Below are positions 2,312 through 39,297 of a stretch of 64,000 nucleotides of DNA, one piece after another. This stretch comes from Fructobacillus fructosus KCTC 3544 (GTDB lineage: Bacteria; Bacillota; Bacilli; Lactobacillales; Lactobacillaceae): the NCBI RefSeq assembly GCF_001438695.1, contig NZ_JQBH01000001.1, forward strand, positions 127,248 through 191,247, given 5' to 3'. Positions within the stretch are counted from its first letter, which is position 1. Each line of letters begins with the position of its first letter. Position numbers and translations under genes: made by a program. The notes under the pieces are model-generated. The model saw only the letters and a list, made by a program, of their open reading frames with translations. It was not told where the DNA came from and searched no databases.

Positions 2312-2829
2312 TAATCTAACAATCCTTCCAAAACATCGATCGTAATGACCTGATCCGCTATATTCACATCTTTCACAACGTCAGCGATTACCGGAATTAG
2401 GGCATCTGGGCCCTTTGGTCGTTTCACAATCCAAACATCATTAGCACCGGTCTCCATGATTTCTTTGACCTGACCAATCACTTGACCGCTTTCATCTTGA
2501 ACCGTGCAGTCGATAATATCAGAGTAGTAATACTCCCCATCGTCCAGGTCTTCTCGGTCTTCGGCCGCCACGAAAAGATCTTGCCCCTTGTAGGCTTCCA
2601 CCTCATTAATGTTGGTCACACCTTTAAAAGTCAGCAACCACATCCCCTTATGGACACGGGCCTTCTCAATGGTTTCTTCGTGATATTTTCCATCTGCCAG
2701 GCGATAAACCTTGGCTCCCTTTGCAAAACGGGTTTCGCCAAAGTCAGTAATGGCTTTTACCTTTAGCTCGCCACGAATCCCGTGGGTATTGACAATGGTT
2801 CCAATTTTAAAATAGTTTTCAGTTTCCAT
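2311..2829 (-). CDS. rimM: 16S rRNA processing/ribosome maturation factor RimM
   Basis: Assists 30S head assembly through binding of S19. It has the N-terminal RimM beta-barrel ([16 protein letters not shown]) and a C-terminal PRC barrel (about residues 97-172). The ATG at 2827-2829 is forced: an in-frame TAA lies upstream and no other start is near the conserved N-terminus. There is no Shine-Dalgarno sequence; instead a TATAAT box lies 7 nt upstream, so the mRNA is probably leaderless. It heads the rimM-trmD-rnz-recJ operon, separated from rpsP by a terminator. Confidence 0.95.
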
Positions 2830-2842
2830 ATCGTCTATTATA
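2827..2842 (-). promoter_or_regulatory. Extended -10 promoter abutting rimM start (predicted leaderless)
   Basis: On the minus strand TGCTATAAT (extended -10; TATAAT at 2837-2842) is followed by AGACGAT and then the rimM ATG. Transcription would begin at about the base before the ATG. No AGGAGG-like site fits in the 7 nt. Confidence 0.65.
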
Positions 2843-2910
2843 GCAAATTATTCGCCACTCCTCCTGTCAAAAGCAGTTCAGCTTATCTTCTGCTAGTGTA
2901 CATACAAAAG

Positions 2911-24872: not shown

Positions 24873-25790
24873 TTAATTTAAGCGATCCTGTTTCCACTTT
24901 GAAGAATTCTTCTGGTAGACAGGCCGCTTGCCCTTAATAATCTGGTAAAACAATTCATAGCTATTATAGCGCGCTGCACTAATGCTGCCAAGCTCGACCG
25001 CTTCTTTCACGGCACAGCCAGGCTCATTTAAATGCGAACAAGTTCGAAAACGGCAGTTCGGTGCCACTCGGCGAATTTCTGGGAAATAATCCCCCAGTTC
25101 TTCCGCCGGAAAATCAAAGACCTCGTAGGACGAAAAGCCAGGCGTATCAGCGATTAAGGTTTGGTAAACCTTTACCGGAATCAACGAAACCTGACGCGTC
25201 GTGTGCTTACCCCGTGATAGTGCTTGGGAAACTTCACCAACCGCTAACTTCAAATTTGGTGCTAATTCATTGAGGAACGTTGATTTCCCAGCCCCGGTTT
25301 GACCCATGACAACGACCACTTGATTTTTTAGTAAGGACTGAAAGGTATTTCGCCAATCATCCTTTGAAAAAATCACTGTATAGCCAATCGTTTCATACAG
25401 TTGAACTTGCTTTTGAAAGGCCACTTGGTCCGTTTCCGACAGTAAATCCAGCTTTGAAAAGTACAAAACCGGCTGAACTTTGGCGGCTTCAAGCGCCACC
25501 AACTGTCGGTCCAACAAGTTCTGTGAAAAAGCCGGCTCAATGACAGACGTCACCACGATGGCCAAATCAACGTTCGCAATGGGCGGACGCACCAAGCTAT
25601 TTTCCCGAGGATGTAAAGACCAGATTAAGCCCTCCCCGTTTTCAGATTCGAAATCGGCCCAATCGCCAACCAAAGGCTTTTGACCATTTTTGCGAAACTG
25701 TCCCCGAGCCCGTGTTCGTTCAACGGACCCATCGGACAGCATCAAATCATAATAACCGGCCAAAGACCGAATAATTCTTCCTGTTTTCAT
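24873..25790 (-). CDS. rsgA: Ribosome small-subunit GTPase RsgA
   Basis: Circularly permuted GTPase of late 30S maturation. N-terminal OB fold, permuted G motifs with P-loop [12 protein letters not shown] and [10 protein letters not shown], and C-terminal zinc knuckle [14 protein letters not shown]. The conserved start is [10 protein letters not shown] at 25790; an in-frame ATG 11 codons upstream lies across the promoter. TATAAT sits only 6 nt before 25790 and no ribosome site exists, so the mRNA looks leaderless. Confidence 0.95.
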
Positions 25791-25802
25791 AGCCCCATTA
25801 TA
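25788..25802 (-). promoter_or_regulatory. Extended -10 promoter abutting rsgA start (predicted leaderless)
   Basis: Minus-strand TGGTATAAT (TATAAT at 25797-25802), GGGGCT, ATG. The expected +1 is the A of the start codon. It follows directly on the prkC terminator region. Confidence 0.6.
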
Positions 25803-25830
25803 CCATGGGTCTGGAGTTGGCATTCTAATA

Positions 25831-25860
25831 AAAAAGGATTCCCCATGGGGAATCCTTTTT
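25831..25860. terminator. Bidirectional terminator after prkC
   Basis: Perfect 30-bp palindrome AAAAAGGATTCCCC/GGGGAATCCTTTTT with T runs on both strands; ends the prpC-prkC transcript. Confidence 0.88.
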
Positions 25861-36395: not shown

Positions 36396-36836
36396 TTACT
36401 TATCGAACAACTTCAGGTACTTACCGTACCCCTCTTTTTCCATATCAGCCTTTGGGATGAAACGCAGAGCGGCTGAGTTAATGCAGTAACGCAAGCCCCC
36501 CTTGTCTTGAGGGCCATCTGGAAAGACGTGGCCCAGGTGGGAATTAGCATCACGCGAACGCACCTCAGTACGGGTCATTCCGAACGAATGGTCCGTGTCT
36601 TCCTTCAAATCAGCATCATCGATTCCCTTTGTGAAGGCTGGCCAACCACAGCCAGAATCATACTTATCCGTTGATGAAAACAACGGTTCTCCCGAAACCA
36701 CGTCAACAAAAATGCCATCATCCCACCACTGGTCATACTTTCCAGTAAAGGGACGCTCCGTTGCGGCGTTTTGAGTAACTTCATACTGTTCTGGTGTCAA
36801 GCGAGCCTTTAATTCTTCTTGGTTATACTTCGTCAT
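36396..36836 (-). CDS. msrB: Peptide methionine-(R)-S-oxide reductase MsrB
   Basis: Reduces Met-R-sulfoxide in proteins. Conserved [24 protein letters not shown] and catalytic [11 protein letters not shown]. The two CxxC zinc pairs seen in many MsrBs are absent ([15 protein letters not shown]), the non-zinc type common in lactic bacteria. 146 aa. It overlaps msrA by 14 bp. Confidence 0.96.
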
Positions 36837-37359
36837 GTGCTTTATCCTCCCAATACTTTTCCTGATAACGCTTGCGGGGAACCATCATCATCGCTTCGCG
36901 AAGGGGGTCCTTCTTATAAAAGTCTTGGTGATACTCCTCGGCCTCGTAGAAAGGCTTGGCGTCTTCAATAGACGTCACAATTGGTCGATCAAAACGACCG
37001 GATTCTTCAAGTTCTTTCTTGGACTCTTCCGCTATCCGCCGTTGTTCGGGTGAATTAACAAAGATGACTGGCCGGTAACTATCTCCGCGATCCGCAAACT
37101 GACCGGTGGCATCCGTTGGGTCTGCCACCTGCCAATACAAATCCACCAGCTCCTTGTAGGAAATCACATCTGGATCAAACCAGATTTTAACGGCTTCCGT
37201 ATGTCCCGTTGTGTGGGAACAAACTTCTTCGTAGGTTGGATTGGCAACATGCCCACCGGTATAACCGGAACGAACCTTCTCAATTCCCGGTAAGGAATCA
37301 AACGGTTCAACCATGCACCAAAAACAACCACCTGCAAAAATTGCTGTATCTTCTGCCAT
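36823..37359 (-). CDS. msrA: Peptide methionine-(S)-S-oxide reductase MsrA
   Basis: Reduces Met-S-sulfoxide. Catalytic motif [12 protein letters not shown] near the N-terminus; [16 protein letters not shown] and [14 protein letters not shown]. 178 aa. The start has a perfect AGGAGG 8 nt upstream, but this site lies in the 3' arm of an 18-bp hairpin, so translation may be gated by RNA structure. First gene of msrA-msrB, downstream of clpX-engB. Confidence 0.96.
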
Positions 37360-37361
37360 GT

Positions 37362-37401
37362 AAAAGACCTCCTAAGTACTATTGTACTCAGAAGGTCTTT
37401 T
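37362..37401 (-). terminator. 18-bp hairpin burying the msrA Shine-Dalgarno site (attenuator/terminator)
   Basis: Minus strand: arm AAAAGACCTTCTGAGTAC (37401-37384), loop AATA, arm GTACTTAGGAGGTCTTTT (37379-37362). All 18 positions pair (two G-U). The second arm contains AGGAGG (37368-37373) and ends in TTTT only 2 nt before the msrA ATG. It could terminate engB transcripts, repress msrA translation, or both. Confidence 0.8.
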
Positions 37402-37462
37402 TCGTCAATGGTCTAGTTGCTTTTTTTCAAAACAAATCGATAAAATCCATAGCAACCAGACA

Positions 37463-38047
37463 TTACATTTTACTTTCAATCCACTCCCAGACCTTTTCTT
37501 TACCGGATTTCGTTACCGATGAAAAGAAACAGAAGTCGGAATTACTTGGGTCGAAATCAACTGCTTTTTTGATGATTGATTCTGATTGGTTTAGTTTTCC
37601 ACGAGCGATCTTATCCGCCTTGGTCGCCACCAACAGCACCGGAATGTTGTAGTAAGCCAACCACTGGTACATCATGATGTCTTCTTGGCTTGGCTTATGA
37701 CGGGCATCCACAAGGGAAATCACACCCCGTAACTGTTTACGGGTACTAATATAGGTTTCAATCATTTGGCCGAAAGCTTCTCGTTTCTTTTTTGAAACCT
37801 TAGCGTAGCCATACCCAGGGACATCGACAAAGTACAGGGCATCCTCAACTGAGTAAAAGTTCAATGTTTGCGTCTTACCCGGCTGCCCGGAAGTCCGGGC
37901 GAAGTTTTTACGGTTAATTAGCGTGTTGGTTAACGATGACTTCCCAACGTTTGACCGCCCAACCAGCGCAAATTCTGGCCGCCCGTCTTCTGGGTATTGG
38001 CTTGGTGAAACGGCCGACATGACCATTTCGACGTTATGCACATCCAT
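37463..38047 (-). CDS. engB: Ribosome biogenesis GTP-binding protein EngB (YsxC)
   Basis: TrmE-Era-like GTPase needed for 50S assembly. P-loop [12 protein letters not shown], switch region [15 protein letters not shown]3 [10 protein letters not shown]4 ATKADK. 194 aa. It sits five bases after clpX, the normal pair. Its 3' flank holds a second possible stem (GTCTGGTTGC/GCAACTAGAC) before the msrA hairpin. Confidence 0.96.
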
Positions 38048-38052
38048 GATGC

Positions 38053-39297
38053 TTACCCTTCCTTTTTCAGAACCAACTTCGGTTCCTTACCGTTTTCAAC
38101 GGCTGCCTTTGTAATGACAACTTTTTCAACATCATCACGTGATGGAATTTCGTACATCACGTCCTTCATCACTTGCTCAATAATGGAACGTAGTCCACGA
38201 GCTCCGGTTCCACGCGCAATAGCCAAGTCAGCCATCGCCTTCAAAGCCGTTGGCTGGAATTCAAGATCCACGCCGTCCAAGCCAAGCAGGGCCTTATACT
38301 GTTTAACCAGTGCGTTCTTTGGCTTCGTCAAGATGTGGGTCAAGTCTTCCACAGTCAATTCATCCAAAACCGTAATGATTGGCAACCGACCGATAAATTC
38401 AGGAATCAGCCCGAATTTCGACAAGTCCTCCGGCTCCACGTTTTGTAAAATATTCTTCTTACTCAATGCCTCCGCATTGTCCGAGGAAGCGGAACCAAAG
38501 CCAATCACCCGCTTACCCAAACGCTCTTTGATGATCGTATCAAGACCGGCAAAGGCCCCACCGACAATAAAGAGAATGTTAGTGGTATCAATCTGAATCA
38601 TCTCTTGGTTCGGATGCTTACGACCACCCTGAGGTGGTACAGAAGCAACCGTTCCTTCTAACATCTTCAGTAGGGCTTGTTGAACACCTTCACCTGAAAC
38701 GTCTCGTGTAATCGAAACGTTTTCAGACTTTTTCGCAATCTTATCAATTTCATCCACGTAGATAATGCCACGTTGTGCGGTCTCAACGTCAAAATTAGCT
38801 GCTTGCAACAGCTTCAACAAGATGTTCTCTACGTCTTCACCAACATAGCCCGCTTCTGTCAAAGTCGTGGCATCGGCAATGGCAAAAGGCACCTGCAAAA
38901 TCTTAGCAAGCGATTGCGCAAGATAAGTCTTCCCCGAACCAGTTGGACCAAGCAAGGCGATGTTCGACTTTTGAAGCTCCACATCCGTCGTCTTCAACGC
39001 GTTTTCGTTAACGCGCTTGTAATGGTTGTAGACCGCGACGGCCAAGGTCTTCTTGGCATCTTCTTGACCAATTACATAGTCACCTAGTGATTCAACAATT
39101 TCCTTTGGCGTCGGCAATTCCAATTGTTCACCCTCTGCATCTAGGGCTAAGTCTTCTTTGATGATTTGCTCAGCCAAATCCGTACATTCATTACAAATAT
39201 ACAGACCATCAGGCCCAGCGACCAGTTTTTTAACCTCATCGGCGCCTTTTCCACAGAACGAGCAGTGAATCATTGGTCCTTGATTTTCTTCAGTCAT
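38053..39297 (-). CDS. clpX: ATP-dependent Clp protease ATP-binding subunit ClpX
   Basis: AAA+ unfoldase feeding ClpP. N-terminal zinc-binding domain with CSFC and CNEC, Walker [18 protein letters not shown], Walker B YVDEIDKI, pore loop GYVGEDVE, sensor FIGRLP and ClpP-binding loop IGFGS. 414 aa. Downstream of tig, but with a terminator between. Ribosome site GAAAGGA. Confidence 0.98.

What the first reader, a model, noticed from the sequence alone, without database searches (positions are those of the whole stretch)
37357..37401. msrA ribosome site locked in an 18-bp hairpin
Every base of AAAAGACCTTCTGAGTAC pairs with GTACTTAGGAGGTCTTTT around a 4-nt loop. The AGGAGG of msrA lies in the 3' arm, and the stem ends 2 nt from the ATG with TTTT. 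It reads as both terminator of clpX-engB and translational lock on methionine sulfoxide reductase. Opening by heat, oxidation-sensitive RNA-binding protein, or an upstream alternative stem (GTCTGGTTGC/GCAACTAGAC, also present) could switch msrA-msrB on.
Basis: partly seen in the sequence, partly recalled or inferred. Interest (0 to 1): 0.6.

Follow-up and report, generated by a model that had tools for sequence, protein, structure and literature searches.

The report
msrA start hairpin containing its promoter
A strong RNA hairpin at the start of a protein-repair gene probably forms only in messages that run in from the genes upstream, blocking or ending them, while the gene's own conserved promoter sits inside the hairpin and probably starts a shorter message that escapes it.

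Summary
The hairpin is real: 18 uninterrupted pairs (two G-U) on the msrA strand, the longest such stem in the window, with AGGAGG in the 3' arm. ATTGAC, TACAAT and AGGAGGT are invariant upstream of msrA in all 13 same-genus genomes searched. RNA entering from clpX-engB should fold it and bury the ribosome site. Seven of 13 genomes have a strong hairpin (14-19 bp) with a T-run behind it; the other six keep the promoter but have only weak or no such pairing and no T-run. Best reading: a combined terminator and translational lock for readthrough RNA, insulating msrAB from clpX-engB. Heat opening and the 'alternative stem' are not supported. The principle is known (phage T4 gene e, I-TevI; proposed at Bacillus subtilis sigG): a new member of a known kind. 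No transcript start, 3' end or translation was measured.

The parts
37362..37401 (-). 18-bp hairpin: 5' arm 37401-37384, loop 37383-37380 (AATA), 3' arm 37379-37362
   Evidence: pair counts over 7 genomes
37403..37408 (-). -35 element TTGACG of the msrA promoter (ATTGAC invariant in 13 of 13 same-genus genomes)
37381..37386 (-). -10 element TACAAT; TAC lies in the hairpin's 5' arm and AAT in its loop (present in 13 of 13 same-genus genomes and 4 of 4 loci of two nearby genera)
37387..37402 (-). 16-nt promoter spacer; all but its first base is hairpin 5' arm
   Evidence: 0 of 2000 spacer shuffles fold as well
37372..37376 (-). predicted msrA transcription start region, inside the hairpin's 3' arm (about 5-9 nt after the -10; inferred, not mapped)
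   Evidence: position relative to the -10 element; rule recalled
37368..37373 (-). Shine-Dalgarno AGGAGG of msrA, in the hairpin's 3' arm
   Evidence: AGGAGGT invariant
37362..37365 (-). T-run at the hairpin foot (terminator-like tail); a T-run is present in 7 of 7 strong-hairpin genomes and absent in the 6 other same-genus genomes
   Evidence: not listed by the terminator scan
36823..37359 (-). msrA, peptide methionine sulfoxide reductase A
   Evidence: Pfam PF01625
36396..36836 (-). msrB, overlaps the end of msrA
   Evidence: Pfam PF01641
37463..38047 (-). engB/ysxC-type GTPase, upstream gene whose readthrough would carry the hairpin
   Evidence: MMR_HSR1 (gene name recalled)
38053..39297 (-). 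clpX
37411..37461 (-). separate upstream stem GTCTGGTTGC/GCAACTAGAC; does not compete with the lock

Best explanation
The hairpin is a readthrough-specific block laid over the msrA promoter. RNA polymerase coming from clpX-engB transcribes both arms; the 18-bp stem folds, should terminate part of the RNA at the T-run next to the ATG, and locks the AGGAGG of any RNA that continues. RNA polymerase starting at msrA's own promoter (-35 TTGACG, -10 TACAAT in the hairpin's arm and loop) begins within the 3' arm, makes a leader of about 15 nt, has no 5' arm to pair with, and is translated. Net effect: msrAB output follows its own promoter and is insulated from clpX-engB transcription. Shown from sequence: hairpin, promoter motif and its conservation, pairing kept through changes on both sides, co-occurrence of T-run and strong hairpin. 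Computed: ribosome site closed in long RNA and more open in short RNA. Inferred: the start site, that readthrough reaches msrA, termination, and the effect on translation.
For: TTGACG-16-TACAAT matches 10 of 12 consensus bases at 37408-37381; ATTGAC, TACAAT and AGGAGGT are invariant in 13 of 13 same-genus msrA upstream regions, and 17 of 17 loci with engB upstream (13 plus 4 of two nearby genera) fit TTGNNN-16-TACAAT, against 1 of 97 msrA loci without engB upstream. Strong hairpin in 7 of 13: 96.8% of 126 cells paired, 3 pairs with changes on both sides, covariation score reached by 0 of 500 shuffles, sliding the partner drops pairing to 43-59%. A T-run follows AGGAGGT(C) in all 7 (tail score 3.2-4.2) and not in the 6 others (0.5-1.1). 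With RNA starting 7 nt after the -10, computed cost of opening the window's SD is 17.2 kcal/mol in readthrough RNA and 0.6 in own-promoter RNA. The arm pattern occurs once in each of 6 genomes and nowhere else in 13; among 248 SD-bearing candidate starts on the window's contig msrA alone has an uninterrupted stem over 11 bp holding the SD. Mechanistic precedents: PMC3014915, PMC2988022, PMC5942855 (passages).
Against: No start site, 3' end or translation data. Consensus promoters are common by chance (4 found in the region, 3.9 expected in shuffles), so the promoter rests on its conservation. The T-run is only four T in the window and the terminator scan did not list the hairpin. Six of 13 same-genus genomes and the 4 nearby-genus loci do without the strong lock, so it is not essential; in five of those six a weaker pairing over 4-5 of 6 SD bases is predicted, in G009 as an uninterrupted G-U-rich 12-bp stem, none better than spacer shuffles, so the contrast is strong versus weak rather than all or none. 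The both-sides-changed pairs come from few lineages (5 cells: G002 and the close pair G004/G010); 24 of 500 shuffles also reach 3 such pairs, 384 of 500 reach as many pair types, and the shuffles do not keep relatedness. In four hairpin genomes (G007, G006, G004, G010) the own-promoter RNA's SD is computed as unpaired only 23-26% of the time, and with a start one base before the SD the window's own value is 0.50 at 37 C rather than 0.81. Readthrough from engB is assumed.
Confidence: 0.72

Rival explanations
1. Plain intrinsic terminator of clpX-engB squeezed into a short intergenic gap; burying the msrA ribosome site is an incidental by-product with no function of its own.
For: T-run and strong hairpin occur together in 7 genomes and the T-run is missing in the 6 same-genus genomes without the strong hairpin; stems with A-run/T-run flanks are common in the window.
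Against: The T-run is short and the terminator scan did not list it. The stem is built from the msrA promoter spacer and ribosome site, and uninterrupted pairing over the SD is kept in all 7 genomes.
Confidence: 0.17
2. One reading: the hairpin sits in msrA's normal message and is opened by heat, an oxidation-sensitive protein or an alternative upstream stem.
For: The SD is wholly paired in RNA that carries both arms.
Against: A conserved promoter should start RNA inside the hairpin; computed SD accessibility in long RNA is only 0.4% at 60 C; the upstream stem shares no base with the lock, and forbidding it leaves lock pairs at 0.99 probability. A protein partner was not testable.
Confidence: 0.04
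3. DNA operator: the inverted repeat over the -10 is the binding site of a repressor of msrAB and the RNA pairing is secondary.
For: The repeat is centred on the -10/start region, where repressors often bind (general knowledge).
Against: The inner half-site GAGTAC-N4-GTACTT is not enriched in the genome: 54 matches with up to 2 mismatches on both strands against 98 for the reversed control. The dyad changes sequence and loop length between subclades and the strong form is absent in 6 genomes that keep the promoter. All 9 wobble cells within the inner 14 pairs are G-U on the msrA strand and none is an A-C mismatch, but at only 4 pair positions.
Confidence: 0.06

Closest known systems
Phage T4 gene e (lysozyme) leader, and the T4 I-TevI leader (PMC3014915, PMC2988022; passages read)
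   Same: Long upstream-started RNAs fold a helix over the ribosome site and are poorly translated; a promoter just upstream of the ribosome site starts shorter RNA that lacks the 5' strand and is well translated.
   Different: Phage late promoters give temporal control there; here a sigma-70-type promoter of a chromosomal repair gene, with a terminator-like T-run at the stem foot. Reported from experiments there, predicted here.
Bacillus subtilis sigG large upstream hairpin (PMC5942855; passages read)
   Same: Chromosomal gene of the same phylum; [quoted passage not shown]
   Different: Forespore sigma factors and a sporulation gene there; here sigma-70-type hexamers upstream of msrAB, with the -10 in the arm and loop. 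No homology was tested.
Readthrough-protected transposase genes (IS10/IS50; recalled only; the search gave no paper that describes it in the passages seen)
   Same: Transposase ribosome site locked in RNA entering from outside and free in RNA from the element's own promoter.
   Different: Mobile elements protecting against activation; here a single-copy chromosomal operon.

Membership tests
Readthrough-specific ribosome-site lock (T4 gene e / I-TevI / sigG type) | Helix covers SD and/or start codon in upstream-started RNA | tested here: met
   (6 of 6 SD bases paired in all 7 strong-hairpin genomes; computed)
Readthrough-specific ribosome-site lock (T4 gene e / I-TevI / sigG type) | Promoter whose RNA starts after the 5' arm of the helix | tested here: met
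   predicted promoter, hexamers conserved in 13 of 13 same-genus genomes; start site not mapped
Readthrough-specific ribosome-site lock (T4 gene e / I-TevI / sigG type) | Upstream transcription that reaches the gene | not testable with these tools
   clpX and engB lie upstream on the same strand; no RNA data
Readthrough-specific ribosome-site lock (T4 gene e / I-TevI / sigG type) | Reduced translation of the long RNA | not testable with these tools
   needs reporter fusions
Intrinsic (Rho-independent) terminator | Stable stem followed at once by a U-run | tested here: inconclusive
   Stem very stable and a T-run accompanies it in 7 of 7, but only TTTT in the window and not listed by the scan
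RNA thermometer | SD becomes accessible in a physiological temperature range | tested here: not met
   SD unpaired 0.06% at 37 C, 0.4% at 60 C (computed)
Riboswitch or attenuator with alternative stems | Mutually exclusive upstream stem | tested here: not met
   The named upstream stem shares no base with the lock and both form together
Riboswitch or attenuator with alternative stems | Match to a known family | tested here: not met
   No Rfam family reaches its gathering score in the window
Repressor operator | Dyad sequence conserved across species at the promoter and recurring in the genome | tested here: not met
   Arms vary and the strong dyad is absent in 6 of 13 genomes; half-site not enriched

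The most novel reading that the evidence does not exclude
One 47-bp element (37408-37362) is at once promoter, ribosome site, terminator and readthrough lock: the free bases of the promoter spacer have evolved to complement the ribosome site, so a housekeeping operon is insulated both transcriptionally and translationally from its neighbour, and related species with and without the strong form make a natural experiment on operon insulation.
Probability: 0.5. Interest if true: 0.55.

Novelty: new member of a known kind. Interest (0 to 1): 0.42.

Why it matters
Translation that depends on which promoter made the RNA is documented in phage T4 and proposed at B. subtilis sigG in the papers seen here. 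A compact example on a repair operon, strong in 7 of 13 genomes of one genus and weak or missing in 6 that keep the same promoter, would let one ask directly why a cell insulates one gene from its neighbour. It is also a caution: a 'ribosome site locked in a hairpin' read from DNA may never occur in the gene's own message.

Tried and rejected
Rfam scan of the window: no match at gathering scores. RNA thermometer: rejected on computed accessibility from 20 to 60 C. Alternative stem switch: rejected, no shared bases. Repeated element: rejected, the arm pattern is single copy where it occurs. Regulon box upstream of the -35 (AACTAKACCATTGAC): not enriched, 7 matches with up to 2 mismatches against 8 in the reversed control. 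Weak pairing in the six same-genus genomes without the strong hairpin: in five the fold is no better than spacer shuffles (446 to 1608 of 2000 as good); in the sixth (G011) 52 of 2000, but only 1 of 6 SD bases is paired. The four nearby-genus loci: 501 to 1406 of 2000. Stems of 12 bp or more holding an SD-like sequence upstream of msrA in more distant relatives: 0 of 17 loci of other genera of the family and 0 of 80 named loci. Trees: 2 changes of the hairpin label on both; the number of gains or losses is unresolved. In one search some rows lacked clpX (G011 and the four outgroup rows) or msrB (G050, G082). Paper searches with no hits: msrA, terminator, ribosome binding site, Lactobacillus, methionine sulfoxide reductase; readthrough transcripts, internal promoter, transposase and others; Fructobacillus, methionine sulfoxide reductase; terminator overlapping promoter terms; translationally inactive readthrough terms; msrA, msrB, Leuconostoc, promoter, terminator. 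Searches with listings: 2 papers, passages of both read; 3 papers, passages of one read; 14 papers, passages of three more read. PMC5942855 was used; PMC3890552, PMC12428005 and PMC6562991 gave nothing of direct use. Plasmid searches gave only distant matches.

Full report
What is there. On the minus strand, between engB (ends 37463) and msrA (starts 37359), lies AAAAGACCTTCTGAGTAC-AATA-GTACTTAGGAGGTCTTTT (37401-37362), followed by AC and the msrA ATG. Every position pairs, two of them as G-U. RNA folding of 37320-37470 gives -50.5 kcal/mol, z -6.85 against 200 shuffles, none as good. Scanning both strands of the 64 kb for uninterrupted stems with loops of 3-8 nt, this 18-bp stem is the longest; the next is 17 bp. 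Pfam confirms MsrA, MsrB, a ribosome-binding-type GTPase and ClpX. No Rfam family reaches its gathering score anywhere in the window.

The same bases carry a promoter: TTGACG (37408-37403), 16 nt, TACAAT (37386-37381), 10 of 12 consensus matches. By itself that is weak, since shuffles of the 3.1-kb region give 3.9 such hits on average and 4 were found. But msrA was found in 13 of 13 genomes of the genus (the window's own included), and in the aligned upstream regions ATTGAC, TACAAT and AGGAGGT are invariant in all 13. Two loci of each of two nearby genera also fit TTGNNN-16-TACAAT, one pair with TTGTTT as the -35. An engB-type motif lies within 1.5 kb upstream in 17 of these 17 loci; in 97 further msrA loci (17 of other genera of the family, 80 named contigs) it is found in none, and the promoter pattern in 1 of 97. 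The -10 occupies the end of the hairpin's 5' arm and the loop. A start 5-9 nt after it falls in the 3' arm (37376-37372), so RNA from this promoter cannot contain the 5' arm, whatever the exact start in that range.

Is the pairing selected? Seven of the 13 genomes have a strong hairpin, with uninterrupted stems of 14 to 19 bp. Of the other six, G009 has a G-U-rich 12-bp stem over the SD, and weaker pairing over 4-5 of 6 SD bases is predicted in five including G009; G011 has almost none. Shuffling only the 16-nt spacer, with the -35, -10 and ribosome site fixed, gave as good a fold in 0 of 2000 trials for six of the seven strong-hairpin genomes and 1 of 2000 for the seventh (G006). For five of the six others it was 446 to 1608 of 2000, for G011 52 of 2000, and for the four nearby-genus loci 501 to 1406 of 2000. 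On the alignment of the seven, 96.8% of 126 cells are paired, three pairs have changes on both sides and the covariation score is reached by 0 of 500 shuffles. On the other hand 24 of 500 shuffles also reach three such pairs, 384 of 500 reach as many pair types, the shuffles do not keep relatedness, and the five both-sides-changed cells come from G002 and from the close pair G004/G010. Two genomes have a 6-nt loop. The four unpaired cells lie in the outer A-U part of the stem; the inner 14 pairs are never broken, and their nine wobbles, at four pair positions, are all G-U on the msrA strand.

Terminator. A T-run follows the SD arm in all seven strong-hairpin genomes, with tail scores of 3.2-4.2 (scoring formula recalled); the six other same-genus genomes lack it (0.5-1.1) and the four nearby-genus loci score 0.7-1.9. 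Strong hairpin and T-run thus occur together, which speaks for termination of clpX-engB RNA. But the window has only four T, and the tool's scan, which needs five in a window of eight after the stem, did not list it.

Lock. In RNA containing both arms the computed cost of opening the SD is 14.9-20.4 kcal/mol in the seven strong-hairpin genomes. In RNA started 7 nt after the -10 it is 0.3-4.2 kcal/mol. For the window the values are 17.2 and 0.6. In the six other same-genus genomes the long-RNA cost is 1.7-6.3 and the short-RNA cost 0.7-1.5 kcal/mol, so a mild lock may exist in some of them too. In four of the seven (G007, G006, G004, G010) the short RNA's SD is still computed as paired about three quarters of the time by weak structures, so 'open' is relative there. 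With about 390 nt of RNA before the SD it is unpaired 0.06% of the time at 37 C and 0.4% at 60 C, against about 50% for RNA starting next to the SD. The named upstream stem (37461-37452 with 37420-37411) shares no base with the lock; both form together, and forbidding it leaves the lock at 0.99 pair probability. Neither a thermometer nor an alternative-stem switch is supported.

How widespread. The arm pattern occurs once in each of six of the 13 genomes and nowhere else in the 13; G006, the seventh strong-hairpin genome, differs from the pattern in its arm. On the window's contig, 248 SD-bearing candidate starts (spurious frames included, frames under 80 codons left out) gave only msrA with a stem above 11 bp holding the SD in its 3' arm. 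In samples of 100 kb and 120 kb of two hairpin relatives the only such stem of 10 bp or more is again at msrA (109 and 123 starts). The rest of these genomes was not scanned this way. On trees of EngB+MsrA and ClpX+EngB+MsrA+MsrB (some rows incomplete) the six genomes without the strong hairpin are one clade; the strong-hairpin genomes are not resolved as one. Two changes of state are needed, and gain versus loss is open.

Explanation. The hairpin acts on RNA arriving from clpX-engB, ending part of it and hiding the ribosome site in the rest. RNA from the msrA promoter starts inside the 3' arm and escapes. msrAB is thereby insulated from its neighbour. That readthrough occurs, that termination occurs and that translation differs are inferences.

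Known relatives in mechanism. Phage T4 gene e and I-TevI work this way: long RNAs form the inhibitory helix, while RNAs from the late promoter lack its 5' part (PMC3014915 and PMC2988022, passages read). Closest in kind is B. subtilis sigG, where a hairpin of 20 or more pairs is proposed to block translation of readthrough RNA from spoIIG and cannot form in RNA from PsigG (PMC5942855, passages read). IS10/IS50 are recalled only. No paper on msrA of this kind was found, searches of an open-licence library only, with narrow terms. Hence a new member of a known kind.

Organism. The genome is 1.48 Mb with 45.7% GC in the window. The nearest named protein matches are lactobacilli (very near records may be left out there). 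Size and relatives suggest Fructobacillus; that is inference from recall and was not tested, although the name was looked up.

One search was added; it showed the 12-bp stem of G009, so 'no hairpin' in the six was softened to weak or no such pairing.

Noticed in passing
window 37410-37418 and L001-L011, L094-L097: A box AACTATACC/AACTAGACC directly upstream of the -35 is kept in 11 of 13 same-genus genomes and 4 of 4 nearby-genus loci but lost in G004/G010; possibly an activator site of msrA. The box plus -35 is not enriched in the genome.
   Followed up: partly
window 25780-25830 (minus strand): rsgA-like ORF (name recalled): a terminator-like hairpin (25831-25860) ends 7 nt before the listed ATG, but TGGTATAAT followed by GGGGCT and an in-frame ATG suggests the true start is further in, with leaderless or near-leaderless mRNA.
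   Followed up: no
window 2829-2845 (minus strand): rimM-like ORF starts 7 nt after a TATAAT, again suggesting a leaderless or very short-leader mRNA (gene name recalled).
   Followed up: no
window 36823-36836: msrA and msrB overlap by 14 nt, and a terminator-like stem with a T-run follows msrB at 36380-36359, so msrAB looks like its own unit.
   Followed up: no
L094, L095 (G050, G082): In one nearby genus no msrB-like frame (SGCGWP motif) was found within the 1.5-kb flanks of msrA, unlike the other 15 loci.
   Followed up: no
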